Origin: Bacillota bacterium
Lineage (GTDB): Bacteria > Bacillota > Clostridia > Lachnospirales > Lachnospiraceae
Direction: 5' to 3'
NCBI GenBank assembly: GCA_030526045.1
Contig: JAUNDN010000008.1
Span: forward strand, 18,649 to 64,954
Length of the DNA stretch: 46,306 nucleotides
Positions within the stretch are counted from its first letter, which is position 1; the number at the start of each line of letters is the position of its first letter. The position numbers and the translations under genes were made by a program. Of the stretch, positions 7,671 through 26,431 are shown one piece after another. The notes below the pieces were generated by a model. The model saw nothing but the letters and a program-made list of their open reading frames with translations, ran no database searches and was not told where the DNA came from.

Positions 7671-7683
7671 CCTCTTAGAGATG

Positions 7684-7697
7684 TGAAAGCACTTACA
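7684..7697. promoter_or_regulatory. LacI/CcpA-type operator, copy 2 (importer leader)
   Basis: TGAAAGCACTTACA differs by one base from the uxaB and pta sites. It covers roughly +8 to +21 of the importer transcript, a place where a bound repressor would block initiation or early elongation. Confidence 0.7.
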
Positions 7698-7733
7698 TTT
7701 CGTATAACTCATATATTATTTAAGGAGGTTCTT

Positions 7734-9359
7734 ATGAAAAAGAAATTAGTTTCCGTACTTTTGACGGCTGCTATGGTAGCTTCATTAGTAGGCTGTGGTG
7801 GTTCTAAGGAAGAGGCACCTGCAGAAACAACAGAAAAGACAGAAGCATCTGCTGAAAAGGCAGAGACACCCGACGAGAATGCAGAAGCACCTGCAGAAAG
7901 CTATCAGCTTGACAAGATTACCATGGTAGTTAATGGTACACTTACAGCAACAGTAGACAACGGACAGGCAGATTTTGAAAAGCAGTGGGAAGATGCAGTA
8001 GGCGTTGACCTTGAAATCCAGCAGCTTGACCATTCCGGTTATGTAGATGCAGTTGGACGTCTTTTCGCAGGTGGCGATTATCCTGACGTTATCATTATGA
8101 GTGCAGATATGTATGCACAGTATGCTCCCACAGGACTTCTCTGGGACATGACAGAAGCTTATGAAAATGCTGATTTCCAGGCAAGAATGGCTCTGCCTAC
8201 AATCAACGAAGCACTTAAGAAGGATGGTAAGCTTTACGGCTTCGCACCTACTTACGGTAACGGATGTGTTACATATGTTAAGCAGGCTTGGTTAGATGCA
8301 GTTGGTCTTAAGGCAGAAGACATTAAGACCTATGATGATTACTACAACATGTTGCTGAAGTTCCACAATGAAGATCCTGATGGAAACGGTGTAAACGGCG
8401 ATACCTACGGTGTAGTAGCTGCCGGCTTTGTTGGAAACGAAGCTCCCTATATCAACTACTTGCCTGAGTTCTGGCAGGATGCTTATCCGGCACTTGTACA
8501 GGATGCAAACGGTACATGGATTGACGGCTTCCAGACAGATGCTACCAAGGCTGCACTCTTAAGATTACAGCAGGCATATGCAGATGGCGCAATCGATCCC
8601 GAAACCTTGACAGCTTCCACCAAGATTGCACGTGAGAAATGGTTCTCTAACGATCAGACAGGTTCAGCAGGTGTATTCACATACTGGGCAGGTTCCTGGT
8701 ATCAGACACTGACAGATAACCTGATCAAGAATGAAGTTGATGAAAATATTGTTCAGTTAGCTCCTATTGCAGAAGTTGGCAAATACCTCAACAGAGAAGC
8801 TCCGGTTTGGTGTATCATTGATGACGGTGACGGCGACAATGCTCGTGAGCAGGCTATCTTTGATGCATTCATCGAGACTATGATGGATGGAGATGTTGTA
8901 CAGACACTCTGGACCTATGGTGCAGAAGATGTACACTGGTCTACAAAGGCTGAATCCTTCGTAACTAACCCTGATGATCCTGAAAAGAAGAAAGAATACA
9001 GCTATGAAGATGGTGTATTCCACTTAAAGCCTTCACCGAACGACCCTAACTCCTTATGGAAGAAGAATCACCTTGATCCTGCATTAGTTGTTTGTCCTCT
9101 TACAAACGGCTATGTTGATCAGAGCGAACTTGCTGTAGCAGGTAATAAGTTCTTTACTGAGAACTGTGTAGATGCTCCTATTTCACCTGCATCTGAAACT
9201 TATACAAATGAGTCCGGTACGATTTACGATGCTAAGCTTGCTGTTATCACAGAAGTTGTTGTAAACGGTGGTGATGTAGATGCTGCTATGGAGACATATG
9301 TATCAACAGTTGGAAGCATTGTTGACCAGTGCTTAAGCGAACTGAATGCAGCAGAATAA
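7734..9359 (+). CDS. Extracellular solute-binding lipoprotein of a carbohydrate ABC importer (LplA-like)
   Basis: The start is the ATG at 7734, 6 bases after AAGGAGG, rather than an in-frame ATG at 7683 that would lie inside the operator; this gives 541 residues. The N-terminus has a lipobox LVGC (Cys21) followed by a low-complexity Glu/Ala/Thr linker to about residue 55. The rest fits large oligosaccharide-binding proteins of the LplA type, which pair with LplB/YtcP permeases like the two genes after it. It is anchored outside the membrane and captures the ligand. The locus content suggests pectic oligosaccharides (oligogalacturonides or rhamnogalacturonan fragments), but the ligand is inferred. 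A hairpin separates it from the permease genes, so it is probably made in excess over them. Confidence 0.9.
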   Translation: MKKKLVSVLLTAAMVASLVGCGGSKEEAPAETTEKTEASAEKAETPDENAEAPAESYQLDKITMVVNGTLTATVDNGQADFEKQWEDAVGVDLEIQQLDHSGYVDAVGRLFAGGDYPDVIIMSADMYAQYAPTGLLWDMTEAYENADFQARMALPTINEALKKDGKLYGFAPTYGNGCVTYVKQAWLDAVGLKAEDIKTYDDYYNMLLKFHNEDPDGNGVNGDTYGVVAAGFVGNEAPYINYLPEFWQDAYPALVQDANGTWIDGFQTDATKAALLRLQQAYADGAIDPETLTASTKIAREKWFSNDQTGSAGVFTYWAGSWYQTLTDNLIKNEVDENIVQLAPIAEVGKYLNREAPVWCIIDDGDGDNAREQAIFDAFIETMMDGDVVQTLWTYGAEDVHWSTKAESFVTNPDDPEKKKEYSYEDGVFHLKPSPNDPNSLWKKNHLDPALVVCPLTNGYVDQSELAVAGNKFFTENCVDAPISPASETYTNESGTIYDAKLAVITEVVVNGGDVDAAMETYVSTVGSIVDQCLSELNAAE

Positions 9360-9391
9360 TCTAAGGCTGTTAAACTAATAAGTAATTTAGG

Positions 9392-9427
9392 ATGGCTGCC
9401 CTGTCTGATTTGCGACGGGACAGCCAT
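9392..9427 (+). terminator. Imperfect hairpin after the binding-protein gene, likely attenuator or mRNA-stabilising structure
   Basis: ATGGCTGCCCTGTC (9392-9405) pairs with GACGGGACAGCCAT (9414-9427) with one C-A mismatch and one G-U pair. No run of T follows directly, so it may act as a 3' stabiliser or a leaky terminator rather than a full stop. Confidence 0.55.
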
Positions 9428-9506
9428 TCATAAGGAAATAAACAATCTGCTTTTGTTATTTATGTACATTTTTTTAAAATATAGGATGTTTTTGTTGTGA
9501 AAAATG

Positions 9507-9515
9507 TGCTATAAT
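9507..9515 (+). promoter_or_regulatory. Possible extended -10 promoter before the permease genes
   Basis: TGCTATAAT is a perfect TATAAT (9510-9515) preceded by the extended TGN element. No good -35 box lies at the right distance. It would give the permease genes a second start 100 bases before the first ATG, with an AT-rich upstream stretch. Confidence 0.4.
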
Positions 9516-9615
9516 TGTTTTGTCAAGGCGTTTGCCGCTTTGCACTGTATTTTCTGGCCGTTGCTCTGGCCAGCTTCGAATATGAAACATTAAAGTAGGA
9601 AAGGAAGAGAACGGT

Positions 9616-10584
9616 ATGAAAAAGAAAAAGCAAGCAGTCATGACGTCTACAGGTGTACCGGTACGGCAGAAACCGTTAAGCCTTCGCATCTGGAACCACA
9701 GAGGATATTACATAATGTTCCTGCCGGTTCTGATCTTCTTGATTATTATGAATTACTGGCCGATGCTCGGTATCAGGTATGCATTTTACGATTACAAGCC
9801 GGTAGGTGAGCCGGTGTTTGTGGGATTGAAGCATTTTGAGAAAATGTTTTCAACAGATGCTTTCTGGGTGGCCTTCAAAAATACACTTCAGCTGAGTATT
9901 ATGAAGCTGATCCTCACCACATTTACTTCTGTAATTGTATCGATCTTTTTAAATGAAATGGGAAATTTATTTGCAAAGAAGACCTTGCAGACTATTATAT
10001 ATTTGCCTCACTTTATGTCATGGGCAGTAGTTGCATCCATCTTCAGCTTGTTGCTTTCCCCCTCCAGTACCGGTATGGTAAACGGATGGCTGAGAGATTT
10101 GGGAATTCTTGCACAGGATGCAAAGGGAATTTATTTCCTCGCTGACTCCAAGATGTGGAGACCGATTTTCTACCTGATCAATATTTGGAAGGAGACCGGT
10201 TGGGGAACCATTATTTTCCTTGCGACGCTTTCGGGAATTAATCCGGAGTTGTATGAGGCCGGTGATATTGACGGTGCGACACGTATGCAGAAGATTCGTT
10301 ATATCACACTGCCGGCACTTGCAAATACGATCATTACGGTATTGATTCTGAATCTTGCTAAGGTTATGAATATGTTTGAATCGGTATTTGTTTTGTACAA
10401 CAATGCGGTTTATGATGTATCCGATGTTATTTCTACATACATTTATCGTCAAACATTCGCAGTTGCTTTGCCGAACTATGGTTATTCCACCGCGGTGGGT
10501 CTGTTCAAATCTCTGGTAGGGTGTTTCCTTGTTCTTGTATGTAACTGGGCAAGTAAGAAGACACGTGGCCGGGGCATTGTATAG
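9616..10584 (+). CDS. Carbohydrate ABC transporter permease, LplB-type
   Basis: This 322-residue integral membrane protein has about six hydrophobic helices after a basic N-terminus of about 35 residues. The cytoplasmic EAA loop that contacts the ATPase is visible as ELYEAGDIDGATRMQKIRY. The N-terminal pattern (WNHRGYYIMFLPVLIF, then YWPMLGIRYAFYDYKP) is characteristic of LplB-like permeases that handle complex polysaccharide fragments. It forms a heterodimer channel with the product of the next gene. Start ATG is preceded by AGGAAAGGAAGAG. Confidence 0.9.
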   Translation: MKKKKQAVMTSTGVPVRQKPLSLRIWNHRGYYIMFLPVLIFLIIMNYWPMLGIRYAFYDYKPVGEPVFVGLKHFEKMFSTDAFWVAFKNTLQLSIMKLILTTFTSVIVSIFLNEMGNLFAKKTLQTIIYLPHFMSWAVVASIFSLLLSPSSTGMVNGWLRDLGILAQDAKGIYFLADSKMWRPIFYLINIWKETGWGTIIFLATLSGINPELYEAGDIDGATRMQKIRYITLPALANTIITVLILNLAKVMNMFESVFVLYNNAVYDVSDVISTYIYRQTFAVALPNYGYSTAVGLFKSLVGCFLVLVCNWASKKTRGRGIV

Positions 10585-10595
10585 GAGGTGTGATC

Positions 10596-11462
10596 ATGGC
10601 AAAGACTAGCGCAGTTTATACAAAGAAAAAGAATAAGATTAAATTATTTGATGTAATTAATTATATTGTATTTATTATTGTAGGCCTGATTGTTTTGATT
10701 CCGATCTGGAAGGTGTTAATAGATTCCTTAAATGCGGTTGGTGTTTATCAGTTCAGACTTTGGCCCAGTCACTTTACTCTTGATGGTTATAAGACAATTA
10801 TTAAGACTAATGCCTTATATCAGCCCTTTTTTAATTCTGTGATTACAACGATTTTGGGAACCTTGCTTGGTTTGGTTTTGTCTACCCTTGGAGGATATGT
10901 GCTGGTACAATTTGAAATGCCCGGTCGTAATTTTCTGGCGTATGTACTGTTGTTTACCATGATTTTCAGCGGTGGTATGATTCCTGAATACCTGGTAATG
11001 AAGCAGTTGGGATTGGTTAACAGCATGTGGATTCTGGTTGTAAAGCATGGTATCAATGTTTACAATCTGGTACTGATGAGAAACTTCTTTGAAGGAATTC
11101 CGGGAAGCCTTTATGAAGCAGCCAAGATTGACGGATGTTCCCCGATGGGAATTTTCTTCAAAATTGTACTTCCGCTTTCCAAGGCAGCTTTGGCATCTAT
11201 TGGTCTGATGTTTGCAGTTACCGTATGGAATGACTATTCAACGGTTAAGATTTACATTACAGATCCTTCCCAGGTTAACTTCCAGTATAAGCTAAGAAAC
11301 ATGATCATGGATGGTGATACCCCTGTTACAGCGTACAATGTATCACAGACAACGCTGTTTAATGCTGGTATCATTGCAGCAATTCTTCCTTTCATGGTTC
11401 TGTATCCGTTCCTGCAGAAGTATTTTGTTAAGGGCGTGAATATCGGAGCTGTTAAGGAATAA
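10596..11462 (+). CDS. Carbohydrate ABC transporter permease, YtcP/AraQ-type
   Basis: This is the second permease subunit. I chose the ATG at 10596, which lies 7 bases after the strong AGGAGG, over a GTG at 10590 that overlaps the ribosome binding site; it gives 288 residues. Six hydrophobic helices are visible, and the EAA loop reads SLYEAAKIDGCSPMGIFF. It follows the first permease by 11 bp. No ATPase gene is found here, as is common for this permease group, which in other Firmicutes borrows a shared MsmX-like ATPase encoded elsewhere. Confidence 0.9.
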   Translation: MAKTSAVYTKKKNKIKLFDVINYIVFIIVGLIVLIPIWKVLIDSLNAVGVYQFRLWPSHFTLDGYKTIIKTNALYQPFFNSVITTILGTLLGLVLSTLGGYVLVQFEMPGRNFLAYVLLFTMIFSGGMIPEYLVMKQLGLVNSMWILVVKHGINVYNLVLMRNFFEGIPGSLYEAAKIDGCSPMGIFFKIVLPLSKAALASIGLMFAVTVWNDYSTVKIYITDPSQVNFQYKLRNMIMDGDTPVTAYNVSQTTLFNAGIIAAILPFMVLYPFLQKYFVKGVNIGAVKE

Positions 11463-11475
11463 TTTAGGAAAGATG

Positions 11476-12168
11476 ATGAAAACAATTTTTTGGGCAGGAG
11501 ATTCTACTGTACAATATAATGACATCACGACCTATCCTCAGACAGGAATCGGTCAGGTATTTCACCTGTTTGTCAAACCTGAAGTGAGAATTTCCAATCA
11601 TGCAAAAAACGGGAGAAGCACTAAAAGTTTTATTGATGAGTCCAGACTTCCGGTAATTTATGATCAGATAACAGAAGGAGATTTCCTTTTCATTCAATTT
11701 GGTCACAATGATGAAAAGAAAGCAGATCCCGTAAGATACACGGAACCCTTTTCAGAATTTAAGATTAATCTGGGTAAGTTTGTAAGCGTTGCCAGGAACA
11801 AAAAGGCATTTCCGGTTTTGATTACGCCTCTGGAGAGAAGATGCTTTACGGATGACGGTGTTCTGGGAGCGGGAGAACATGGAGATTATGTGAAGGCAAT
11901 GAAGCAAACGGCAGATGAGCTTGCCGTACCGCTGATTGACCTATATAGCATGAGCCGTGATGAACTTGAGAAGGCAGGAACAGAGAAATCCAAGGAATGG
12001 TATATGCATTTGCCAAAGGGAAAATATCCGTCCCATCCGGAAGGGCTGATTGACAATACGCATCTGAAATATGAAGGAGCAGTCAGGTATGCCGGATGTA
12101 TCGCAAAAGGATTGAGAGAACTTGGTGGCAGATACAGTGAACTATTGCTTGAAGAAGCAGTAGAATAA
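11476..12168 (+). CDS. Rhamnogalacturonan acetylesterase-like SGNH hydrolase (CE12)
   Basis: It is predicted to remove acetyl groups from rhamnogalacturonan oligosaccharides. The SGNH blocks are intact: GDST near the N-terminus (nucleophile Ser), NGRST (Gly block), FGHND (Asn block), and DNTHLKYEG near the C-terminus holding the Asp/His pair. This set and the length of about 230 residues fit the CE12 / RhgT family. No signal peptide is present, so it acts on imported material. There are two adjacent ATG codons (11473 and 11476); the second has the better distance from AGGAA. It lies 13 bp after the permease gene in the same operon and is followed by a terminator. Confidence 0.88.
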   Translation: MKTIFWAGDSTVQYNDITTYPQTGIGQVFHLFVKPEVRISNHAKNGRSTKSFIDESRLPVIYDQITEGDFLFIQFGHNDEKKADPVRYTEPFSEFKINLGKFVSVARNKKAFPVLITPLERRCFTDDGVLGAGEHGDYVKAMKQTADELAVPLIDLYSMSRDELEKAGTEKSKEWYMHLPKGKYPSHPEGLIDNTHLKYEGAVRYAGCIAKGLRELGGRYSELLLEEAVE

Positions 12169-12176
12169 AAGGTTAA

Positions 12177-12210
12177 TAAAATGGCTTGGGAGTTGATCCT
12201 AAGCCATTTT
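12177..12210 (+). terminator. Intrinsic terminator or attenuator after the acetylesterase gene
   Basis: AAAATGGCTT (12178-12187) pairs perfectly with AAGCCATTTT (12201-12210), with an inner GG/CC extension. The T run is short (four), so partial read-through into the GH43 gene is likely; I see no clear promoter for that gene. Confidence 0.65.
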
Positions 12211-12256
12211 GTGCAAAAATGTTAAATATTTCCATGAAAGGAAGGTGACGAGAAAT

Positions 12257-13819
12257 ATGGATAGATTGTGGAAGGCTGATTTGAAGAACGGTACATTTCA
12301 AAACCCGATTCTATTTGCTGACTATTCAGACCCCGACGTGATCAGAGTAAGGGATACATTTTATATGACAGCATCCAGCTTTAATTATGTACCCGGTTTA
12401 CCGATTTTGACCTCTAAGGATCTGGTAAATTGGAAGCTGGTCAATTATGCTATTGAAAAAATTGATTATGATAACTATGATGTTCCGCAGCATGCAAAGG
12501 GCGTATGGGCACCTGCTATCAGGTATCATGGTGGAGAGTTTTATATCTATTACGGGATGCCGGATGAAGGCATTTTCATGGTAAAGACAAAGGATCCTCT
12601 GGGCAAATGGGATAAGCCGGTGCTTGTGCTTGAAGGGAAAGGATTGATTGATCCTTGCCCGTTTTGGGATGAAAATGGATCCGCATATATCATTCACGGA
12701 TATGCAAAGAGCCGTATCGGATTTAAGAGTTATCTGGGCATTTTTTCGATGTCACCGGAAGGAGATAAGGCAGTCGGTGATGATAAGCTCCTGTATAATG
12801 GTGTAGTTACACAGCCGACGATCGAAGGACCGAAGGTTTATAAGAGAAATGGCTATTACTATATTTTTGCTCCAGCAGGCGGTGTGAAAACAGGCTGGCA
12901 GACGGTGCTGCGGTCAAAAAGTATTTACGGTCCATATGAAGAGAAAATTGTGATGCATCAGGGGAGTACGGATGTGAACGGACCGCATCAGGGAGGCCTT
13001 GTAGATACAGTTTCCGGACAAGAATGGTTTCTCCACTTTCAAGACAGGGGATTGTATGGAAGAATTGTTCATTTACAGCCGTTGGTGTGGAAGGAAGACT
13101 GGCCGGTTATCGGAATCAATCCGGATGAAAACGACTGTGGAGAGCCTTGTATCGTGTATCCAAAGCCGGATGCAGGAGCAGCCCGGGAGGTTTGCTATCT
13201 GGAGGCTTCAGACGATTTTGAGGGAGAAAAATTGAATCTTATGTGGCAGTGGCTCGGCAATCCCAAAAAGGAATTTTACAAGTTGGAAGAGGGGAAGCTT
13301 CGACTGTTCTGTCTGAATCCGTCTGGCAGGAAGGAAGCAGTTCTTTGGGAAAATGCCAATGTGCTGACTCAGAAATTGATATGCCCTTATTTTGAGGCAA
13401 TATGTTGTTTTGAAACAACGCATTTGCAGGAAAATGAGCAGGCGGGGATGGTGATGATGGGAGGACACTATGCCTATCTTAGTGTTAGAAGGAAGGATGG
13501 AAGAAATACATTTGTTTATGGGCAAAGCTATGATACAGCAGAAGGTATGCGGGAAAATGTAGAAATACTCGGTATACTTATGGAAAGTAGCAAGGCATAC
13601 GTTAGATTCCGGATGGAAAGAAAGGATGATTTGCCACAATTTTTCATGGATTATTCTGATGACGGGATTCATTTTACCAATGTGAAAACAGATTTTATGC
13701 CATCCGATCATACCTGGGTCGGAGCCAAAGTCGGATTATTTGCCAATGTCCTTGAAGAAAATGAGAAGGGCGGCTTCGCTGATTTTGATTTTATCCATGT
13801 GACAGCAAGGGAGGACTGA
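12257..13819 (+). CDS. Glycoside hydrolase family 43 enzyme (beta-xylosidase / alpha-L-arabinofuranosidase type)
   Basis: I chose the ATG at 12257, after AAGGAAGGTG, because an upstream in-frame ATG at 12209 lies in the terminator; this gives 520 residues. The five-bladed propeller has the expected acidic residues: general base D25 in SDPDV, modulator D132 in LIDPCPFWDENG, and general acid E190 in TIEGPKVYKRNG. Residues about 320-520 form the beta-sandwich domain that often follows GH43. There is no signal peptide, so it is cytoplasmic. In this locus it would remove arabinose, xylose or galactose side groups from pectic fragments; the exact sugar cannot be read from sequence. It is 2 bp from the next gene. 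Confidence 0.88.
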   Translation: MDRLWKADLKNGTFQNPILFADYSDPDVIRVRDTFYMTASSFNYVPGLPILTSKDLVNWKLVNYAIEKIDYDNYDVPQHAKGVWAPAIRYHGGEFYIYYGMPDEGIFMVKTKDPLGKWDKPVLVLEGKGLIDPCPFWDENGSAYIIHGYAKSRIGFKSYLGIFSMSPEGDKAVGDDKLLYNGVVTQPTIEGPKVYKRNGYYYIFAPAGGVKTGWQTVLRSKSIYGPYEEKIVMHQGSTDVNGPHQGGLVDTVSGQEWFLHFQDRGLYGRIVHLQPLVWKEDWPVIGINPDENDCGEPCIVYPKPDAGAAREVCYLEASDDFEGEKLNLMWQWLGNPKKEFYKLEEGKLRLFCLNPSGRKEAVLWENANVLTQKLICPYFEAICCFETTHLQENEQAGMVMMGGHYAYLSVRRKDGRNTFVYGQSYDTAEGMRENVEILGILMESSKAYVRFRMERKDDLPQFFMDYSDDGIHFTNVKTDFMPSDHTWVGAKVGLFANVLEENEKGGFADFDFIHVTARED

Positions 13820-13821
13820 GG

Positions 13822-15723
13822 ATGACTTTACAGGAAGCGATTCTAAGTAAAAATCTGGAAGCGGTAAAACAAATTTTGACGGAAGACCCTCCCCGAATAG
13901 ATGACAAGGATGAAAATGGAGTGCCACTTTGCCTGATTGCTGCAGCTACTGGTTCCTTTCCGATTGTGAAATATATTGTAGAGTATTCCAGAGCAAGCAT
14001 GAATACAGTAGATGAGAAGAACCGGAATATTCTTCATTATGCTGCAATGTCGGGAAATGCCGAGCTCGCACGATATCTGGTCGAGAAGGTTGGAATAGAT
14101 ATTACCTCGGGAGATAAGAATCTGATTACACCGTATCAGATTGCTTATGAAAATGGATATGAAGAGCTTCTTGGTTATTTTCAGGAAAAGGTTCAGGCAT
14201 CCTATCAGGAAATGTACCATAATCCGATTCGGACAGGGATGTTCCCTGATCCTTCGATTGTGCGTGTAGGTGAAGATTATTATATGGTGAATTCCTCCTT
14301 TATTTTCTTTCCCTGTATTCCCATTTCGCACTCAAAGGATTTGATTCATTGGGAGATAATCGGTCATGCTATCACGAATCCTAAATGGGCATATCTTGAT
14401 GAACTGGAAGGAGGAAGAGGATACTGGGCTCCCGATATCTCTTATGACAATGGGACGTTTTATATTACGGCTACCTACAGATTGAATGATACTGGAACTG
14501 TTTACAGGAGACAGATAGTAGTCTCTTCCGATAAACCGGAGGGACCCTACAGCGAACCTGTTTTTATTGAGGAGGATGGGATTGATCCGTCTATTTTCCA
14601 TGAAAACGGAAGACACTATATGCTTCTCAACAGAGGTGCAAGAATTTTTGAGCTTTCATCTGACTGTAAAAAACAAATTTCAGAGGCAAAGCTTCTCTAT
14701 TACGGAGATTATAAACGAGCACCGGAGGGTCCTCATCTTTTAAAAAAGGATGGCTATTATTATCTGTTCCTTGCAGAGGGCGGAACAGGACCGGGACATC
14801 GCATTACCGTTGCAAGAAGCAGGGAACTCATGGGGAATTATGTGCCATGTCCTTATAATCCTATTATGAGACAGACGGATGAATTGGCAGGTATTCAAAG
14901 ATGTGGTCATGGAAAGCCGGTGTGTACGCAAAACGGGCAGTGGTATATGGTATATTTGTGCGGAAGGATGATCGGAGAAGGATACAGTATTCTTGGAAGG
15001 GAAACAGCTTTGGATCCTATCACATGGACTGCGGATGGCTGGCCAATAGTCAACAGTCTGAATGGACCGAGTGTGCTTCAGAAAAAACCGGATCTTCCCG
15101 AATGGAAACCTGTGAAAAAAAAGAACGAAGATTTTGTGACTCCAAGACCACCGGAAGAGGGTGCGGTAAATTTCAGGGATGATGTTTTACTTCTTAAGGG
15201 AAGCAGAAAACCACTTGGCAGTGTTGATGCCAGAAATATCCTGTTGAGAAGACAGACCTCTTTCTCGTTTGTTGCAGAAGTGATCATGAAAGTACCCCGT
15301 CTTTGTGAAAACCAGGAATGCGGTATCACCTGCTATTATGATGAAAATACATGGGTATGTTTTTTTGTTTCCAAACAGGGAGAAGAGTATTTTTTCCGGG
15401 TAAAAGAACATATTGGCACAGAGGATATTTTACATGAGAAAAAAAGATTGGATAATCCTGTAGATAAACGGTATGTGCTTGGGGTGGATACAAATTATTT
15501 GAATAGAAGATTTTATTATAGACCTGAGAATATTGAAAAAGAAAAGCAGGGGATGCCACAGACCGAAGTTACTGTTTCTGAGCTTCCCTGTGTATATTAT
15601 CTCTGTGATGAAGGAATCCGCATGGGCAAACGATTTACAGGTGCCATGGTGGGAATGTATGGATATGCCGGAGATAAAGAGTTGTGTACGGAGTTTCAAA
15701 AATTTGAATACCGGGATCTATAA
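13822..15723 (+). CDS. Ankyrin-repeat / GH43 fusion protein
   Basis: The 633-residue protein starts 2 bp after the first GH43 gene stops and has its own GGGAGGA site. Residues 1 to about 122 form roughly three to four ankyrin-type helical repeats (for example VPLCLIAAATGSFPIVKYIV and NILHYAAMSGNAELARYLVE). A GH43 propeller begins at about 133, with base D143 in FPDPSIV, modulator D255 in IDPSIF, and acid E302 in PEGPHLLKKDG, all present. A C-terminal beta-sandwich domain runs from about 445 to 633. The frame is continuous and both parts look intact, so it is a real fusion and not a sequencing join. No signal peptide. Ankyrin repeats usually bind proteins, which suggests the enzyme is held in a cytoplasmic complex. 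The exact sugar is unknown. Confidence 0.85.
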   Translation: MTLQEAILSKNLEAVKQILTEDPPRIDDKDENGVPLCLIAAATGSFPIVKYIVEYSRASMNTVDEKNRNILHYAAMSGNAELARYLVEKVGIDITSGDKNLITPYQIAYENGYEELLGYFQEKVQASYQEMYHNPIRTGMFPDPSIVRVGEDYYMVNSSFIFFPCIPISHSKDLIHWEIIGHAITNPKWAYLDELEGGRGYWAPDISYDNGTFYITATYRLNDTGTVYRRQIVVSSDKPEGPYSEPVFIEEDGIDPSIFHENGRHYMLLNRGARIFELSSDCKKQISEAKLLYYGDYKRAPEGPHLLKKDGYYYLFLAEGGTGPGHRITVARSRELMGNYVPCPYNPIMRQTDELAGIQRCGHGKPVCTQNGQWYMVYLCGRMIGEGYSILGRETALDPITWTADGWPIVNSLNGPSVLQKKPDLPEWKPVKKKNEDFVTPRPPEEGAVNFRDDVLLLKGSRKPLGSVDARNILLRRQTSFSFVAEVIMKVPRLCENQECGITCYYDENTWVCFFVSKQGEEYFFRVKEHIGTEDILHEKKRLDNPVDKRYVLGVDTNYLNRRFYYRPENIEKEKQGMPQTEVTVSELPCVYYLCDEGIRMGKRFTGAMVGMYGYAGDKELCTEFQKFEYRDL

Positions 15724-17171: not shown

Positions 17172-18587
17172 TTATATCTCTTTTAAATTGAAACCGAAAT
17201 ATTTAACAGCATTGTTGTAAGATATTTCTTTTACGATTTCGGACAGTGTATCCATATCTGCGGGAAATTCACCATTCTCGACCATATCACCGATCAGATC
17301 ACAAAGGATTCGACGGAAATATTCATGTCTTGTATAAGACAAAAAGCTTCTGGAGTCAGTCAGCATTCCAACGAAGCCGGAAAGATTTCCGAGATTTGCC
17401 AGGGAAAGCATCTGATTTTTCATGCCGATTTTGTGGTCATTGAACCACCATGCACTTCCCTGCTGAATCTTTGCAACAGCAGTGCTGTCCTGGAAGCAGC
17501 CAAGAATGGTGCCGATTGCTTCATTGTCGTTGGGGTTCAGACTATAGATGATTGTTTTCGGAAGCGTATCATTCTGAATAAGGGCATTCAGGAAATCTGC
17601 CATTTGAGCAGAAGGCGCATAATTATTAATACAGTCATAACCGGTATCGGGCCCAAGTTTTTCAAACATTTGCTTATTGTTATCACGCTTGCAGCCGTAA
17701 TGTAATTGCATCACCCAGTTACGTCTGCTGTATTCTCCACCGACAAACAACATAAATGCTGTTTTGAATTTTAATTCTTCTTCACGGGTTACAGGCTTAC
17801 CTGATAAACGACTTTCAAAAATATGTTCAATTTCTTCATCGGAAGCAGGGACATACATAACATATTCCAGTGCGTGATCTGATACGCTGCATCCCATGGA
17901 AGCAAAAAAGTCCATACGGTTCTTTAAGGCTTCCTTTAGAGCAGAAAAGCTGTTTATTTTGATGCCACTGACATTAGAGAGCGTATTCAGATAGTCAGGA
18001 TAATCCGGCTTTTCGACGTTCATTGCCTTGTCGGGACGCCATGCAGGCAGAACCTGAACCTCAAAGGTGTCGTCTGCAGCGATGGCATCATGCCATTCAA
18101 GAGAGTCTATCGGATCATCTGTGGTACAGATTAAAGTAACATTTGATTGTCTGATCAGGTTGCGTACACTCATGGAAGTCTGGGATAGCTTTTCGTTACA
18201 AAGATTCCAAACCTCCTCAGCTGTATTTTTGTTTAGGGTTCCGTGATAACCAAAATATCTTTGGAGCTCTAAATGACTCCAGTGATAGAGTGGATTACCG
18301 ATTGCTTTGCCCAGAACCTCAGCCCATTTTAAGAATTTTTCCTTATCGGATGCATCACCGGTAATAAAGTGTTCGTCTACACCACAAGAGCGCATAAAAC
18401 GCCATTTATAGTGATCGCCGCCAAGCCATACCTGAGTAATGTTGTCAAATTTTCGATCCTGCGCAATTTCCTTTGGATTGATATGACAATGATAATCCAG
18501 TACGGGCGTTCTCTCAGCGTAATCGTGAAAAAGACGCTGGGCAGTGGGGGTGGATAAAAGGAAATTTTCATCCATAAATGGTTTCAT
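17172..18587 (-). CDS. uxaC: Glucuronate/galacturonate isomerase UxaC
   Basis: It converts D-galacturonate to D-tagaturonate (and glucuronate to fructuronate), the first step of the isomerase pathway. The 471-residue length is normal for the family. The N-terminus MKPFMDENFLLSTPTAQRLF and the metal-binding DYHCHINP motif (H33, H35) are characteristic. The start follows AGGAGGT. It lies 19 bp after the lacI-type gene on the same strand and is probably transcribed with it, opposite to uxaB-uxaA. The product is cytoplasmic. Confidence 0.95.
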   Translation of the reverse strand: MKPFMDENFLLSTPTAQRLFHDYAERTPVLDYHCHINPKEIAQDRKFDNITQVWLGGDHYKWRFMRSCGVDEHFITGDASDKEKFLKWAEVLGKAIGNPLYHWSHLELQRYFGYHGTLNKNTAEEVWNLCNEKLSQTSMSVRNLIRQSNVTLICTTDDPIDSLEWHDAIAADDTFEVQVLPAWRPDKAMNVEKPDYPDYLNTLSNVSGIKINSFSALKEALKNRMDFFASMGCSVSDHALEYVMYVPASDEEIEHIFESRLSGKPVTREEELKFKTAFMLFVGGEYSRRNWVMQLHYGCKRDNNKQMFEKLGPDTGYDCINNYAPSAQMADFLNALIQNDTLPKTIIYSLNPNDNEAIGTILGCFQDSTAVAKIQQGSAWWFNDHKIGMKNQMLSLANLGNLSGFVGMLTDSRSFLSYTRHEYFRRILCDLIGDMVENGEFPADMDTLSEIVKEISYNNAVKYFGFNLKEI

Positions 18588-18606
18588 TGGTAAGTACCTC
18601 CTGAAA

Positions 18607-19620
18607 TTATTTTAATTTTGTTGTTGCCTTGTGAACCAGTTCGCCGGAGAAAATAGTTTTTTGCGGCATTTCTTCTCCGTTTAACGTTCCGATACAGGTT
18701 TTGACCAACTGAGAACAAAGCGTTTCCAGATGGTTATCGATAGATGTGATTTCCGGATCACTACAGGTAGTGAGAAGGGAATTGTTATATCCGATGACAG
18801 ATAGGTCATCCGGAATGGAACGATGATGAAGCTTGGCGTATTTCACAGCTCCGGTTGCCAGCATATCGTCGGATGCAAGAACCGCATGAAATTCTAATCC
18901 TTTTTTGTGAAGCTCTGTAAGAAGCTTGCATACACCATCGATATCCTCATGACTTCCACTAAAATACTGTTGGAACTGCTTGTTGATCGGAATATCCTTC
19001 ATGAGATAAGCGGATTGATATCCGGTCAACTTCTTAATGCCACTGTAGGAAGTGGAATTATATAGATATAAAATGTCATGAATGCCATGATCCAGTAGGG
19101 AAAGAGTAACCTCCTGTGTGGCCTTAAAATCATCACACATGGTGCAGTATACACCGGGACAATCCAAATCCGCATTCAGAAGCATGATGGGTACCTGTGC
19201 GGCAGCGTCACGTATGTATTCATTATCACCGGACTGAGACTCGATAAAATTGGAGCCTACCATAATTACAGCATCTACCCGTTGGTCAAGAAGCATGGCA
19301 AGGGATGCTTTTTTGTCTTCCAACTGATATCCGGTACATCCAAGGATCGTGTGATATCCACCACCTCGCAGATTCTTTTCGATGTAGTAAACTGCCTTGG
19401 CAAGATACAGATCGGAGCAGTCAGCGCATAGAATACCAACCGTGTTCATGGAATTTAATCCCAGTCCCCGTGCGAAAGCATTGGGCGTATAGCCGCATTG
19501 CTCTATAACATCCAATACCTTTTTGCGTGTTTTGGGCTTTACATTGGCGCTTCCGTTCAGCACTCTTGAAACGGTAGCAATGGAAACACCGGCTTGCTTG
19601 GAAATATCATATATCGTCAA
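18607..19620 (-). CDS. LacI-family transcriptional regulator of the pectin/galacturonate locus
   Basis: The 337-residue protein has an N-terminal helix-turn-helix (TIYDISKQAGVSIATVSRVLNG) followed by the hinge and a periplasmic-binding-protein-like effector domain. I place the start at a TTG at 19620 (minus strand), 9 bases after AAAGGAG. A longer frame from 19809 would add 63 residues of non-conserved sequence and run through the divergent promoter region. The TTG start suggests low expression. It is 19 bp before uxaC and divergent from uxaB. Its own leader holds an operator (19656-19669), so it is likely autoregulated. The effector is probably a pathway intermediate such as a uronate or KDG; this is inference. 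Confidence 0.88.
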   Translation of the reverse strand: MTIYDISKQAGVSIATVSRVLNGSANVKPKTRKKVLDVIEQCGYTPNAFARGLGLNSMNTVGILCADCSDLYLAKAVYYIEKNLRGGGYHTILGCTGYQLEDKKASLAMLLDQRVDAVIMVGSNFIESQSGDNEYIRDAAAQVPIMLLNADLDCPGVYCTMCDDFKATQEVTLSLLDHGIHDILYLYNSTSYSGIKKLTGYQSAYLMKDIPINKQFQQYFSGSHEDIDGVCKLLTELHKKGLEFHAVLASDDMLATGAVKYAKLHHRSIPDDLSVIGYNNSLLTTCSDPEITSIDNHLETLCSQLVKTCIGTLNGEEMPQKTIFSGELVHKATTKLK

Positions 19621-19655
19621 TGTATTATACTCCTTTTCGAATTTTGTAAAAAAAT

Positions 19656-19669
19656 TGTAACCATTTACA
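19656..19669. promoter_or_regulatory. LacI/CcpA-type operator, copy 3 (regulator leader)
   Basis: TGTAACCATTTACA keeps the outer TGTAA and TTACA half-sites. It lies downstream of the predicted minus-strand start point and 36 bases before the regulator's TTG codon, a position fit for autorepression. Confidence 0.6.
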
Positions 19670-19683
19670 TAAAAACTAAATTG

Positions 19684-19712
19684 ATTATACAATATTAACA
19701 TTTTAATTACAA
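19684..19712 (-). promoter_or_regulatory. Promoter of the lacI-uxaC unit
   Basis: Read on the minus strand: TTGTAA (19707-19712), 17-bp spacer, TATAAT (19684-19689). The -10 box is perfect and the -35 box weak. Confidence 0.6.
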
Positions 19713-19765
19713 TATTATTTCTGAAAAATGTTTTCGGAAATAGTGTATATTTAGTAAAAACATTA

Positions 19766-19794
19766 TTGACTTCTCTTTTAGCACGTTGTAAAAT
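19766..19794 (+). promoter_or_regulatory. Promoter of the uxaB-uxaA unit
   Basis: TTGACT (19766-19771), 17-bp spacer, TAAAAT (19789-19794). The expected start point is at about 19801, at the first base of the operator that follows. Confidence 0.75.
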
Positions 19795-19800
19795 TGAAAA

Positions 19801-19814
19801 TGTAAGCACTTACA
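19801..19814. promoter_or_regulatory. LacI/CcpA-type operator, copy 4 (uxaB start point)
   Basis: TGTAAGCACTTACA, identical over 14 bp to the site before pta at 28883-28896. It covers about +1 to +14 of the uxaB transcript, a classic repressor position. Confidence 0.75.
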
Positions 19815-19869
19815 CAAATGTGCTTAAAATTCAATCAGAATAAATTATGAAAGAACAGGAGAAGCAACT

Positions 19870-21336
19870 ATGGAATTGTTATCAAGAAGTAAAACCGGCA
19901 AGAAGGAAAGACCGATCAAGGTTCTTCAATTTGGAGAGGGCAATTTCCTGAGAGGATTTGTTGACTATATGATCGATATCGCAAATGAGAAGGGCGAGTT
20001 TAACGGAGATATTGTTCTGGTTAAGCCAATCGAATTTGGAACGCTTGATCGTTTCCGCACCCAGGAATGCCAGTATACGGTTTCTCTTAGAGGAATTGTG
20101 GATGGGGAACCAACTGTTCTTAACCGAATCGTTACAAGTGTTGCAGATGTAGTAGCTGCTCATGAAGAGTACGAAAGATACAGCAGCTATGCAAAGCTTG
20201 ATACCTTGAGATATATTGTTTCCAACACAACGGAAGCCGGAATTGTTTACGATGAGAGTGATAAGCTGGAAATGAATCCGCCTAAGAGCTTTCCGGCAAA
20301 GCTGGCGAAATTTCTTTATGATAGATATCAGTATTTTAATGGGGCAATGGACAAAGGTCTTGTGATGCTGCCCGTAGAATTGATTGATGATAACGGCATT
20401 CACCTGAAAGAATGTGTATTGAAGCAGGCTGATAACTGGAATCTTGAGGATGGCTTTAAGAAATGGGTGAATGAAGCCTGTATATTCACCTCTACCTTGG
20501 TCGACAGAATCATTACCGGCTATCCGAGAGAAGAGGATGCAAAGCTTTGGGAAGAATGGGGCTATCGGGATGAACTAATCGTGACAGGGGAACCTTTTGC
20601 ACTTTGGGTAATTGAAAGTGAGAAGGATATCAGAGAAGAATTCCCGCTTGACAAAGCAGGCCTTCCTGTTATTTTTACCGACAATCAGAAACCATACAAG
20701 CAGAGAAAGGTTCGTATTTTAAATGGTGCTCATACATCATTTGTGCTTGCGTCCTATCTGGCCGGTAATGATACGGTACTGGAATCCATGAAGGATGAAC
20801 TGGTATATCAATTTATGCGCAACACTATTTTTGATGAAGTAATTCCTACCTTGACATTGCCGGAAAAAGATCTGGTTGATTTTGCTGAAGCTGTCACCAC
20901 TAGATTCAATAATCCATATGTGAAGCATGCGTTACTTTCTATTTCCCTGAATTCTGTCTCCAAATGGAGAGCAAGATGTATGCCGAGCTTCCTGGGATAT
21001 GTTGAGAAGAAAGGCAGGCTTCCGAAACATTTAACCTTTTCTCTGGCAGCGCTTATGGCGTTCTATAAGGGTACGGAGATTCGTGACAAGGCACTTATCG
21101 GACATAGAAACGGAGAGGAATATAACATTATGGATGATGCGGCTGTGCTGGAGTTTTTTGCAGCAAACAGTACAAAGCCTTCTAAAGAATTCGCACATGG
21201 CTTCCTTAGCAACTTGGATTTCTTTGGTCAGGATCTGACACAAATTGAGGGACTTGAGGATACGGTTGCAGCATATCTTGATGAAATTGCAGAAAAAGGT
21301 ATGAGAAAGACCATGGAGGATAATTTTCAATCATGA
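19870..21336 (+). CDS. uxaB: Tagaturonate reductase UxaB (altronate oxidoreductase)
   Basis: It reduces D-tagaturonate to D-altronate with NADH, the second step after UxaC. The 488-residue protein has the polyol/mannitol dehydrogenase-type layout: an N-terminal nucleotide-binding start KVLQFGEGNFLRGFVDYMID and the central conserved stretch KQRKVRILNGAHTSFVLASY with the family Lys/Asn/His residues. The start follows AACAGGAGAAG. Its stop overlaps the start of uxaA by 4 bp (ATGA), which implies translational coupling. Confidence 0.95.
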   Translation: MELLSRSKTGKKERPIKVLQFGEGNFLRGFVDYMIDIANEKGEFNGDIVLVKPIEFGTLDRFRTQECQYTVSLRGIVDGEPTVLNRIVTSVADVVAAHEEYERYSSYAKLDTLRYIVSNTTEAGIVYDESDKLEMNPPKSFPAKLAKFLYDRYQYFNGAMDKGLVMLPVELIDDNGIHLKECVLKQADNWNLEDGFKKWVNEACIFTSTLVDRIITGYPREEDAKLWEEWGYRDELIVTGEPFALWVIESEKDIREEFPLDKAGLPVIFTDNQKPYKQRKVRILNGAHTSFVLASYLAGNDTVLESMKDELVYQFMRNTIFDEVIPTLTLPEKDLVDFAEAVTTRFNNPYVKHALLSISLNSVSKWRARCMPSFLGYVEKKGRLPKHLTFSLAALMAFYKGTEIRDKALIGHRNGEEYNIMDDAAVLEFFAANSTKPSKEFAHGFLSNLDFFGQDLTQIEGLEDTVAAYLDEIAEKGMRKTMEDNFQS

Positions 21337-22811
21337 CAATTTTGAAAATACATGAAAATGATAACGTAGCTGTTGCAATCGATACGATCCTCGCGGGAGA
21401 GCAGGTAGAGGCGGGAGGCGAAAAGCTGACTGCACTTCAGGAAATTCCGGCAGGTCATAAGATCGCACTTTGCAACATCGGTGAGGGAGAACCGGTCATC
21501 AAGTATGGCTGCCCAATCGGAAATGCAAAAGAAAACATCAAAAAGGGTGACTGGATACATACCCACAATGTCAAAACAGGTCTGGGCGATTTGCTGAACT
21601 ATACGTATGAGCCTGTGTGTGCCCATAATCCTGAGGGAAAGGACGTTTTTTTTCAAGGCTTTGAGCGCAAAGACGGTAAAGTTGGTGTAAGAAATGAAAT
21701 CTGGGTGATACCTACGGTTGGCTGTGTGAATAATGTAGCCGGTGCGATTTCGAGGGCTGCTAATGCTTATGTAAAAGGAAGCGTGGAGGAAGTGATCTCC
21801 TTTCCACATCCATATGGCTGTTCCCAGATGGGAGATGATCAGGAGCACACAAGAACAATACTCGCTGATCTTATCAACCACCCCAATGCCGGCGGCGTAC
21901 TGGTTCTTGGACTCGGCTGTGAAAACAGTAATATTGATGTTTTAAAGTCCTATATTGGCAGTTATGATGAAAACAGAGTAAAATTTCTGGTCTGCCAGGA
22001 ATCAGAAGATGAAATTGCAGAGGGCGTTAAACTTGTAAGGGAACTGATTGAGTATGCAGCACCTATGAAAAGAGTCCCTGTCAGTGCATCAAAGCTGATC
22101 GTTGGCTTAAAATGTGGCGGTAGTGACGGCTTTTCCGGCATTACAGCAAATCCGCTCGTCGGTAAGTTTTCAGATCTGCTGATCGGAGCAGGTGGAACCA
22201 CGATTTTAACGGAAGTGCCGGAAATGTTCGGAGCAGAAACACTCTTAATGAACCGATGTGAAAATGAAGCGCTATTTGATAAGACAGTGACACTGATCAA
22301 TGACTTTAAGAATTATTTTAAGAGTCATAATCAGACGATCTATGAGAATCCATCTCCCGGTAATAAAAAGGGTGGTATTTCTACGTTGGAAGATAAATCA
22401 CTTGGCTGTACTCAGAAATCAGGCAGCGCACCTGTAAGAGGTGTTCTTCATTACGGAGAGACGGTAAAGACGACAGGACTTAATCTGCTGAGTGCACCGG
22501 GCAATGATCTTGTGGCGGCAACTGCGCTGGCAGCAAGCGGAGCACAGATTGTTTTGTTTACCACAGGCAGGGGGACTCCTTTTGCCTCACCGGTACCAAC
22601 CATGAAGATTTCCAGCAATTCGGGACTTGCAGAACGCAAATCTAACTGGATCGATTTTAATGCAGGAGTACTGGTAGAAGGGGAAGCAATAGACAAGACG
22701 GCAAAGGAACTGTTTGATTTCGTGATGGAAATTGCATCGGGCAAAAAAGTTTGCAGTGAGAAGGCCGGTTTCCATGACATGGCGATTTTCAAGCAGGGTG
22801 TAACCCTATAA
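21333..22811 (+). CDS. uxaA: Altronate dehydratase UxaA
   Basis: It dehydrates D-altronate to 2-keto-3-deoxygluconate (KDG), using iron or manganese. The 492 residues show an N-terminal SAF-like domain of about 90 residues, then the main UxaA domain with the conserved VGVRNEIWVIPTVGCVNNVA, HPYGCSQMGDD and GLKCGGSDGFSGITANPLVG blocks, whose Cys and Asp residues fit metal binding. It starts inside the last codons of uxaB (ATGA overlap). The KDG it makes needs kinase and aldolase genes that are not in this window. Confidence 0.95.
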   Translation: MTILKIHENDNVAVAIDTILAGEQVEAGGEKLTALQEIPAGHKIALCNIGEGEPVIKYGCPIGNAKENIKKGDWIHTHNVKTGLGDLLNYTYEPVCAHNPEGKDVFFQGFERKDGKVGVRNEIWVIPTVGCVNNVAGAISRAANAYVKGSVEEVISFPHPYGCSQMGDDQEHTRTILADLINHPNAGGVLVLGLGCENSNIDVLKSYIGSYDENRVKFLVCQESEDEIAEGVKLVRELIEYAAPMKRVPVSASKLIVGLKCGGSDGFSGITANPLVGKFSDLLIGAGGTTILTEVPEMFGAETLLMNRCENEALFDKTVTLINDFKNYFKSHNQTIYENPSPGNKKGGISTLEDKSLGCTQKSGSAPVRGVLHYGETVKTTGLNLLSAPGNDLVAATALAASGAQIVLFTTGRGTPFASPVPTMKISSNSGLAERKSNWIDFNAGVLVEGEAIDKTAKELFDFVMEIASGKKVCSEKAGFHDMAIFKQGVTL

Positions 22812-22836: not shown

Positions 22837-23940
22837 ATGAAAGCAGAAAATTATATCAGAAAATATTTGACTGAATATCACAACTATAAGGAATACTGGA
22901 ATTATGAGGATGGCTGTGTCCTGATCGGAGCAAAACAGCTTTATGAAGCCACAGGAGAGGAATGGTACTTTACATTCATCGAAAACTACTTAAAGCATTT
23001 TGTTATGAATGACGGGACAATTGCTCATTATCAGACTGATAAATTTAATATTGACAGCATCAATTCCGGGAAAATCCTGTTTTTCATGTATGAAAAAACT
23101 GGAGAGGAAAAGTATCGTAAAGCAATTGAGTTTGTGATGGATCAACTCAGAAGCCATCCGAGATGTAAATGTGGGAACTTTTTCCATAAGCAGATATATC
23201 CGAATCAGATCTGGCTTGACGGTCTTTACATGGCACAGCCTTTTTATATGGAATATGAAACAAAGTTTGATAAGAAGGAACAATATAACGATATTATCAA
23301 TCAGTTTGAAAATGTGCAGAAATACCTGTATGATAAAGATAAGGGACTTTGCTATCATGCCTGTGACGTGGAAAAGGTACAGTCTTGGGCTAATAAGGAA
23401 ACTGGCTGTTCTGCCAATTTCTGGCTTCGCAGTATGGGCTGGTACATGATGGCACTCGTTGATACCATGGATGCCATGAGCATAGAAATCTACGAACAGT
23501 ATCGAAAGCTTCAGGATATTTTTAAGCTGATGTTGAAGGGAATTCTCCGCTATCAGGATGAAGAGACCGGATTGTTTTATCAGGTTATTGACAGAAGTGA
23601 TGTGGAAGGTAATTATCTTGAATCATCAGGAAGCGCTATGATAGGATATGCGATTATGAAGGCTTGCAGAATGGGAATCCTACTGAAAGAAAAGTATGAA
23701 CCTATCGGAACGGGTATTCTTGAAAGCATGATTGAAAATAAGCTTCAAGAAAAAGACGGCTCCCTGCATCTTACGGGTATTTGCGAGGTGGCAGGTCTTG
23801 GACCTGAAAACAAGCCGGAGAGGGACGGAAGTGTTGCTTATTATCTTTCCGAAAAGATCGTGGATGATGATCCCAAGGGCGTTGGACCTTTTATGATGGC
23901 TTACTCACAATATTTAAAGCTCAAAAAAGAAATACAGTAA
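22837..23940 (+). CDS. Unsaturated rhamnogalacturonyl hydrolase (GH105, YteR-like)
   Basis: It is predicted to remove the unsaturated galacturonyl (or related uronyl) residue left by pectate or rhamnogalacturonan lyases at the non-reducing end of oligosaccharides. The (alpha/alpha)6-barrel length of 367 residues is normal. The catalytic Asp is D128 in QIWLDGLYMAQPF, the YteR signature, and the late SSGSAMIGYAIMKA stretch is also typical. No signal peptide, so it works on imported unsaturated oligomers. It is 25 bp after uxaA and followed by a hairpin before GH28. Confidence 0.92.
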   Translation: MKAENYIRKYLTEYHNYKEYWNYEDGCVLIGAKQLYEATGEEWYFTFIENYLKHFVMNDGTIAHYQTDKFNIDSINSGKILFFMYEKTGEEKYRKAIEFVMDQLRSHPRCKCGNFFHKQIYPNQIWLDGLYMAQPFYMEYETKFDKKEQYNDIINQFENVQKYLYDKDKGLCYHACDVEKVQSWANKETGCSANFWLRSMGWYMMALVDTMDAMSIEIYEQYRKLQDIFKLMLKGILRYQDEETGLFYQVIDRSDVEGNYLESSGSAMIGYAIMKACRMGILLKEKYEPIGTGILESMIENKLQEKDGSLHLTGICEVAGLGPENKPERDGSVAYYLSEKIVDDDPKGVGPFMMAYSQYLKLKKEIQ

Positions 23941-23946
23941 AATAAA

Positions 23947-23971
23947 TTTAGAGGGTTCAAAGCCCTCTAAA
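23947..23971 (+). terminator. Hairpin between GH105 and GH28 genes, likely attenuator or processing site
   Basis: TTTAGAGGGT (23947-23956) pairs with GCCCTCTAAA (23962-23971), ten pairs with one G-U, loop TCAAA. It is followed by CTTTT only, so it probably lowers rather than stops transcription of the next genes. Confidence 0.55.
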
Positions 23972-23991
23972 CTTTTATGAGAGGAAACGGT

Positions 23992-25581: not shown

Positions 25582-25585
25582 CAAC

Positions 25586-26431
25586 ATGCAGATTGGAATA
25601 CGATTACACGATGCTGCAAAGCTGCCAATAGAAGAGCGACTGCGGGAAGTAAGAAAGCAAGGATTTACCTGTGCACATCTGGCATTATCCAAGGTGATGC
25701 CGCCTGAGTTTGCAAGGCCTGAGGCATTAACACCCGGTTATGCCATGTACTTAAGACAGCTTTTTGAAAAGAATGAGCTTGCGATTGCTGTGCTGGGATG
25801 CTACCTGAATCTGGCTACGCCGGACAAAGAGAAGCTGAGAGAAAATGTAGAGAAATATAAGGCTCATATTCGTTTTGCTTCGCATCTAGGATGCGGTGTT
25901 GTGGGAACGGAAACCGGTGCCCCAAACACAGAGTATCAATATGAGCCAGCCTGCCATAGTGAGGAAGCACTGGAGCTGTTCATCGAAAGACTTCGTCCCA
26001 TAGTAGAATACGCTGAGAAAATGGGAGTTATTTTTGCAATAGAGCCGGTATGGAAGCATATTGTATGTAATCCCAAACGTGCAAGAAGGGTATTAGATGC
26101 CATTGATTCTCCAAACCTTCAGATCATTCTGGATCCCGTAAATCTTCTTGACATCAGTAATTACGAGAATCAGATTGAAATCGTGGATGAGGCAATCGAG
26201 CTTCTCGGAAAGGATGTTGCGGTGGTTCATCTGAAGGATTACGTGGTTTCAGACGAGGGGCTTAAATCTGTTGCAGCAGGAACCGGTCAGATGAATTACG
26301 ACAGTATACTGAAATTTATCAGGGAAAAGAAACCTTATATCCATACAACGCTGGAAAATACAGTGCCTGAAAATGCAGTGCAGTCTAAGGATTATATCAT
26401 GGATAGATACAATCAAATATCTGTTATTTAA
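25586..26431 (+). CDS. Sugar phosphate isomerase/epimerase-like TIM barrel protein
   Basis: The 281-residue protein belongs to the xylose-isomerase-like TIM barrel superfamily. Likely metal ligands are E153 (AIEPVWKH), D183 (IILDPVNLL), H215 (VVHLKD) and E257 (TTLENT), the usual Glu-Asp-His-Glu set. It is 4 bp after the GH28 gene and surely in the same operon, so it probably acts on a pectin-derived sugar or uronate as an isomerase or epimerase; the substrate cannot be named. Its stop codon overlaps the stop codon of the opposite-strand methylesterase. Confidence 0.8.
   Translation: MQIGIRLHDAAKLPIEERLREVRKQGFTCAHLALSKVMPPEFARPEALTPGYAMYLRQLFEKNELAIAVLGCYLNLATPDKEKLRENVEKYKAHIRFASHLGCGVVGTETGAPNTEYQYEPACHSEEALELFIERLRPIVEYAEKMGVIFAIEPVWKHIVCNPKRARRVLDAIDSPNLQIILDPVNLLDISNYENQIEIVDEAIELLGKDVAVVHLKDYVVSDEGLKSVAAGTGQMNYDSILKFIREKKPYIHTTLENTVPENAVQSKDYIMDRYNQISVI

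What the first reader, a model, noticed from the sequence alone, without database searches (positions are those of the whole stretch)
13822..15723. Ankyrin repeats fused to an intact cytoplasmic GH43 enzyme
About 120 N-terminal residues form ankyrin-like helical repeats in frame with a full GH43 propeller (D143, D255, E302 present) and no signal peptide. Glycosidases usually carry sugar-binding modules, not protein-binding repeats. Because the pectin-degrading enzymes here all appear cytoplasmic, the ankyrin part may dock the enzyme to another locus protein, giving an intracellular assembly for pectic oligosaccharide breakdown. I know of no described function for this pairing.
Basis: partly seen in the sequence, partly recalled or inferred. 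Interest (0 to 1): 0.78.

Follow-up and report, generated by a model that had tools for sequence, protein, structure and literature searches.

The report
Ankyrin-tagged cytoplasmic pectin-locus GH43 enzyme
A sugar-cutting enzyme from a pectin-breakdown gene cluster of gut and other anaerobic bacteria carries a genuine ankyrin domain, a module usually used to bind other proteins; the pairing is conserved in its close relatives, but what the module binds is unknown.

Summary
ORF 13822-15723 (633 aa) is one intact protein: four ankyrin repeats (3-124), a GH43 propeller with D143, D255 and E302, and a GH43_C2 sandwich. Of the 80 closest catalytic-domain relatives kept (of 366 found), 76 carry the ankyrin domain in the same frame; two carry it with an interrupted frame, one has it damaged and one is cut by a contig edge. 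The ankyrin form lies on one side of the tree against seven ANK-free homologues and appears to be under purifying selection. It often follows a second GH43 ('GH43a') in a pectin/galacturonate operon.

Docking to a locus protein is only partly supported. For: in 3 of 21 family genomes GH43a and ANK-GH43b are one ORF; 19 of 21 ANK genomes hold GH43a against 19 of 278 others. Against: AlphaFold2 on the joined genes gave pTM 0.61, as expected without docking; 7 of 8 genomes with an ANK-free homologue hold GH43a too; four ANK genomes show no GH43a. The single chain (pTM 0.91) suggests ANK is fixed on its own enzyme. My paper searches found no description of the pairing. Novelty: new variant of a known kind.

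The parts
13822..15723 (+). ANK-GH43b: ankyrin domain + GH43 catalytic propeller + GH43_C2 sandwich, 633 aa
13828..14193 (+). four ankyrin repeats (residues 3-124)
   Evidence: Pfam Ank_2 E 2.7e-24; four predicted helix pairs; match to solved ankyrins
14215..15045 (+). GH43 propeller (residues 132-408) with D143, D255, E302
15130..15714 (+). GH43_C2 concanavalin-like sandwich (residues 437-631)
12209..13819 (+). GH43a: GH43 + GH43_C2 enzyme directly upstream; one ORF with ANK-GH43b in three relatives; best candidate partner
11473..12168 (+). GDSL esterase (partial, below-cut-off similarity to pectin acetylesterase PaeY), same direction and run of genes
7683..11462 (+). sugar ABC importer: substrate-binding lipoprotein and two permeases
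22837..27438 (.). GH88-type uronyl hydrolase (called GH105 here), GH28, TIM-barrel isomerase (+) and pectinesterase (-)
17172..22811 (.). galacturonate catabolism: UxaC (-), LacI regulator (-), mannitol-dehydrogenase-family UxaB-like (+; label recalled), UxaA (+)

Best explanation
A cytoplasmic GH43 exo-glycosidase (beta-xylosidase or alpha-L-arabinofuranosidase type, inferred from its nearest solved relatives) for imported pectic oligosaccharides that gained an N-terminal ankyrin domain, most simply once, in an ancestor of a clade now found in Lachnospiraceae, another family of the same class, and records named Erysipelotrichaceae. SHOWN: domain order, conservation, separation from ANK-free homologues in the tree, low dN/dS, locus context, natural GH43a-ANK-GH43b single ORFs. 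INFERRED: the ankyrin domain is an assembly module that sits rigidly on its own GH43 body and offers a face to another protein, most likely the neighbouring GH43a, so that two side-chain enzymes work together on the same oligosaccharide. The substrate (for example xylogalacturonan or arabinan-bearing oligosaccharides) is inferred from the locus only.
For: ANK profile hit in 78 of the 80 kept relatives, in the same frame as the enzyme in 76. One branch (SH-aLRT 100) separates the ANK rows from 7 ANK-free homologues. Median dN/dS 0.101 for ANK, 0.036 propeller, 0.139 C2, with dS near saturation. One ORF of 1126-1178 aa in L041, L042, L047. GH43a directly upstream in 37 of 80 loci by the script, plus two classed as 'other' that overlap by 146 bases. 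GH43a in 19 of 21 ANK genomes against 19 of 278 others and in 9 of 9 genomes of a second family, adjacent in one. E54 and Y55 invariant, S56-S59 at least 90% conserved in 72 rows; that this turn departs from the usual ankyrin consensus is recalled.
Against: AlphaFold2 of GH43a+ANK-GH43b of L083 as one chain: pTM 0.61 and a low-confidence junction, as for undocked halves (0.56-0.69 estimated); only 6 of 58 rows were paired, so the test is weak. ANK-free GH43b homologues also co-occur with GH43a (7 of 8) and lie beside it in L150, so a shared substrate explains co-occurrence without docking. Four of 21 distinct genomes show no clear GH43a (G277 is 82% complete, G253 97%, completeness of G311 and G314 not told). 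In L056 another, distant GH43 fills the slot, although that genome holds a GH43a elsewhere. No partner has been measured.
Confidence: 0.37

Rival explanations
1. The ankyrin domain serves its own chain: it caps or stabilises the GH43b propeller, lines its substrate entrance, or makes a homo-oligomer, and docks no other locus protein.
For: pTM 0.91 for the whole chain implies a fixed ANK position; a free ANK would give about 0.68-0.81 by my estimate. ANK-GH43b persists where GH43a is unlinked or not found. No docking with GH43a predicted.
Against: ANK-free homologues of 45-47% identity exist as complete ORFs, and the nearest solved enzyme BlXynB has no ANK, so the fold does not need it. Three single ORFs place ANK between two enzymes.
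Confidence: 0.36
2. The ankyrin domain tethers the enzyme to something else: the ABC permeases, the GDSL esterase, or a protein outside the locus.
For: Permeases and GDSL are found in 48-51 of the 80 loci.
Against: In the other family of the class 8 of 9 fetched loci show none of these genes beside it, two of them with little upstream sequence; no fusion with them was seen.
Confidence: 0.17
3. A functionally idle N-terminal passenger that was never lost.
For: The number of repeats varies (four, or three in L126, L128, L138, L139 and the fusions), and identity is lower than in the catalytic part.
Against: dN/dS about 0.10, below that of the C2 domain; invariant positions; same-frame presence in 76 of 80 kept relatives.
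Confidence: 0.08

Closest known systems
BlXynB, GH43 of Bacillus licheniformis (PDB 6ms2, 6ms3)
   Different: No ankyrin domain; the match starts at about residue 130 of our protein
ANK-free Lachnospiraceae GH43b homologues (L022-L029)
   Same: 45-47% identical over the enzyme part; 7 of these 8 genomes also hold GH43a
   Different: Shorter ORFs that start at the GH43 domain, no ankyrin
Bifunctional GH43-CE protein of Bacteroides eggerthii (PDB 6mly)
   Same: Best solved sequence relative of the neighbour GH43a, E 4.1e-55; a GH43 joined to an esterase, as GH43a lies next to a GDSL esterase gene here
   Different: Different fusion partner, no ankyrin in its name; no paper seen (one search found none)
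Bacterial ankyrin effectors (Dot/Icm AnkG, AnkH and others)
   Same: Only the ankyrin repeats
   Different: 14.4-23.9 bits against cut-offs of 500-1400; a sugar enzyme in a catabolic locus

Membership tests
Glycoside hydrolase family 43 (Pfam PF04616) | Profile match over the curated cut-off | tested here: met
   263.7 bits against 32.2, profile 1-288 of 288
Glycoside hydrolase family 43 (Pfam PF04616) | Asp base, Asp modulator, Glu acid (roles recalled) | tested here: met
   D143, D255, E302 in PDPSI/GIDPSI/APEGPH, same motifs in BlXynB; D143 invariant, D255 and E302 at least 90% in 72 rows
Glycoside hydrolase family 43 (Pfam PF04616) | Glycosidase activity and substrate | not testable with these tools
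   Needs an assay
GH43 subfamily in CAZy's sense | Placement with characterised subfamily members | not tested
   No subfamily models used
Ankyrin repeat domain | Profile match over cut-off | tested here: met
   Ank_2 86 bits against 27.3
Ankyrin repeat domain | Stacked helix-turn-helix repeats | tested here: met
   Four helix pairs predicted, pLDDT means 91-98; sequence match to solved ankyrins
Ankyrin repeat domain | Binds a protein partner | tested here: inconclusive
   No interface with GH43a in one joined-chain prediction; other partners not tried, no binding assay
Cellulosome-type assembly | Dockerin or cohesin domain | tested here: not met
   No such Pfam match in this protein or GH43a at E 0.01
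Dot/Icm ankyrin effectors | NCBIfam cut-off | tested here: not met
   14.4-23.9 bits against cut-offs of 500-1400

The most novel reading that the evidence does not exclude
Cytoplasmic pectic-oligosaccharide breakdown in these Clostridia is organised by an ankyrin module that holds two exo-acting GH43 enzymes together (GH43a-ANK-GH43b), an intracellular, non-cellulosomal enzyme assembly, occasionally fixed as a single gene.
Probability: 0.29. Interest if true: 0.72.

Novelty: new variant of a known kind. Interest (0 to 1): 0.5.

Why it matters
Accessory domains of plant-fibre enzymes are mostly sugar-binding or wall-anchoring (recalled). A conserved protein-binding repeat on an intracellular glycosidase would suggest that the oligosaccharide stage in the cytoplasm is also spatially organised. 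Named species with the gene (Lachnospira multipara L131, L. pectinoschiza L129, Anaerocolumna aminovalerica L115, Butyrivibrio proteoclasticus L128) and the natural single-ORF forms make it easy to test.

Tried and rejected
Viral contigs: no relative of the ANK profile A1. Ankyrin profile over 398 genomes of the phylum: 8 with a match; besides the own genome and G257, six have weak hits (E 2.7e-9 to 1.7e-15) in frames of 170-995 aa, which I take for ordinary ankyrin proteins and did not inspect. Search for more fusions near G271 and G045: none besides the two queries in two overlapping sets of 61 genomes; G024 shows a 1217-aa frame there, but in-frame stops separate its two genes (L115, the same organism's locus), so it is not counted. 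Docking of GH43a tested by one joined AlphaFold2 chain: no interface; kept as a result against. Model coordinates are not given by the tools, so the ANK-GH43 contact face could not be mapped. VIA-align on the whole model fills its list with GH43 rows (130-633) and says nothing about the ANK part. The 'fused' row of the tree table compares only with the ANK-free rows and is no evidence on how many fusions there were. Paper searches: ankyrin + glycoside hydrolase family 43, ankyrin repeat + GH43, ankyrin + pectin + Lachnospiraceae + glycoside hydrolase, ankyrin + Butyrivibrio, three of four terms around fused bacterial ankyrin glycosyl hydrolases; also on pectin GH43. From listings and abstract starts only, none describes the pairing; subscription papers are not in the library. 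BlXynB and BACEGG_01304 by name: no paper held. Two Butyrivibrio papers were seen as passages; neither main text holds the word ankyrin.

Full report

Locus. The gene lies in a pectin/galacturonate region: SBP lipoprotein and two permeases, GDSL esterase, GH43a (a second GH43+C2), ANK-GH43b, MATE, UxaC, LacI regulator, UxaB-like, UxaA, GH88-type hydrolase (called GH105 here), GH28, TIM-barrel isomerase, pectinesterase. By simple hydropathy none of the seven locus enzymes tested (GDSL, GH43a, ANK-GH43b, GH105, GH28, isomerase, PME) has a signal-like N-terminus. In Butyrivibrio proteoclasticus, too, GH28, GH88 and GH105 are described as intracellular (PMC2914790, passages seen), so a cytoplasmic setting is expected, not new.

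How widespread. A protein search of 299 genomes of the window's family, with the ORFs read, gives ANK-GH43b in 21 of 299, the own genome included. I judged ANK in these by reading the sequences; 15 of the 21 made the profile A1. A scan of the GTDB contig collection with the catalytic region only, so blind to ANK, found 366 relatives, of which the best 80 were kept. A six-frame ANK profile search hits 78 of 80; in 76 the ANK is in the same open frame as the enzyme. Of the other four, L102 and L104 hold ANK with an interrupted frame, L055 a damaged ANK, and L100 begins at a contig edge inside it. The 80 are the closest relatives, so this describes the clade, not all GH43. The ANK profile over 391 genomes of the class hits 14, all in frames of 600-682 aa; the 11 loci fetched and the three seen before are ANK-GH43b. 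Nine of the 14 belong to another family of the class (code f20). The four Erysipelotrichaceae-labelled rows in the tree lie inside the Lachnospiraceae part, which suggests transfer between families, or binning error.

Origin. A tree of 73 catalytic domains (quick method: the window row, 35 of the 80 kept loci, 19 of 20, 11, and 7 ANK-free rows, the eighth, L029, having dropped out by my start motif) puts the ANK rows on one side of a branch with support 100. This fits one gain. The single-ORF L041 and the interrupted L043 are sisters (99), inside a starred set of 21 rows (98) that excludes L042 and L047; the latter two stand at unresolved deep forks. So at least two origins of the fusion, or one with later splitting, are possible. 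Pairwise identity averages 51% in ANK, 80% in the propeller and 45% in C2 (2556 pairs); median dN/dS is 0.101, 0.036 and 0.139 from 118, 98 and 84 of 324 pairs, with median dS 1.6-1.9, so the values are rough. The ANK thus looks kept by selection.

Partner evidence. In L041, L042 and L047, 3 of the 21, GH43a and ANK-GH43b are one ORF of 1126-1178 aa, in which the first ankyrin repeat is missing. In L043 the end of GH43a is in frame with ANK but its front lies in another frame. None of the 80 kept relatives shows a fused ORF. GH43a is directly upstream in 37 of 80 by the script (gaps -100 to 138 bases with leftmost start codons, so overlaps are upper bounds); elsewhere in the held stretch in 18, of which L061 and L064 are in fact overlapping upstream genes; not found in the stretch in 19; and 6 have too little upstream sequence. 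Over the same 299 genomes I count 38 with GH43a (clear score gap; G249 and G041 counted from fragments): 19 of 21 ANK genomes and 19 of 278 others, Fisher p 1.3e-17. Two cautions: relatedness of genomes is ignored, and searches scored at most four candidates in most genomes, so some genes may be missed. In 24 handles, which I take as 21 distinct genomes, chosen because GH43a was not adjacent (or, for G042, because the contig ended), 17 hold one elsewhere (two as fragments), and G253, G277, G311 and G314 show none with all candidates scored. In the other family all 9 genomes hold GH43a, adjacent to ANK-GH43b in one, L140.

Results against docking. ANK-free GH43b homologues co-occur with GH43a as well: 7 of 8 genomes, p 1.6e-8 (G127 and G174, which have both forms, were counted as ANK), and the two lie side by side in L150. 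The pairing of the two enzymes is therefore not a consequence of ANK and can rest on a shared substrate. AlphaFold2 of L083 GH43a + ANK-GH43b, joined by reading one stop as Trp, gave pLDDT 90.6 but pTM 0.61, with the junction 529-534 under 50. By the pTM formula (recalled) an undocked pair would give 0.56-0.69 and a rigid one about 0.93. For the single chain, pTM 0.91 is above the 0.68-0.81 estimated for a free ANK, so ANK seems fixed on its own enzyme.

Judgement. The architecture is real, conserved and, by the searches listed, not described in the open papers held; automatic annotation of such proteins probably exists (recalled, not checked). An assembly role with GH43a and a role within the own chain are nearly equal in my view. 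It is a new variant of a known kind: a GH43 of BlXynB type with an unusual accessory domain.

Noticed in passing
L056:7891-9342: Between GDSL and ANK-GH43b, where GH43a usually lies, this locus has a different, distant GH43 (483 aa).
   Followed up: partly
L150:8276-11449: An ANK-free GH43b lies directly next to GH43a, with a large pectinesterase-like ORF nearby: the two-enzyme pair also exists without ankyrin.
   Followed up: partly
window 12209-13819: GH43a's best solved relative by sequence is a Bacteroides GH43-esterase protein (6mly), while here a GDSL esterase gene stands next to GH43a.
   Followed up: no
L043:8503-11947: GH43a and ANK-GH43b look like a further fusion whose frame is interrupted in this draft assembly; described only.
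   Followed up: no
L076, L093, L095, L098, L099, L101, L109, L120: Records labelled Solobacterium or Erysipelotrichaceae carry ANK-GH43b; the four in the tree nest inside the Lachnospiraceae part, as after horizontal transfer (or binning error).
   Followed up: partly
window 7683-11462: No ATPase gene is beside the sugar ABC importer genes among the Pfam-scanned neighbours; a shared ATPase is likely (recalled from other Bacillota).
   Followed up: no
window 6009-7469: A beta-lactamase-fold serine hydrolase gene has relatives in 37 of the 80 loci; its role in the pectin locus is unclear.
   Followed up: no
L061, L119, L127: Record titles name Bacillus, Lactobacillus rogosae and Bacteroides, yet the gene groups with Lachnospiraceae; probably mislabelled records or old names.
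   Followed up: no
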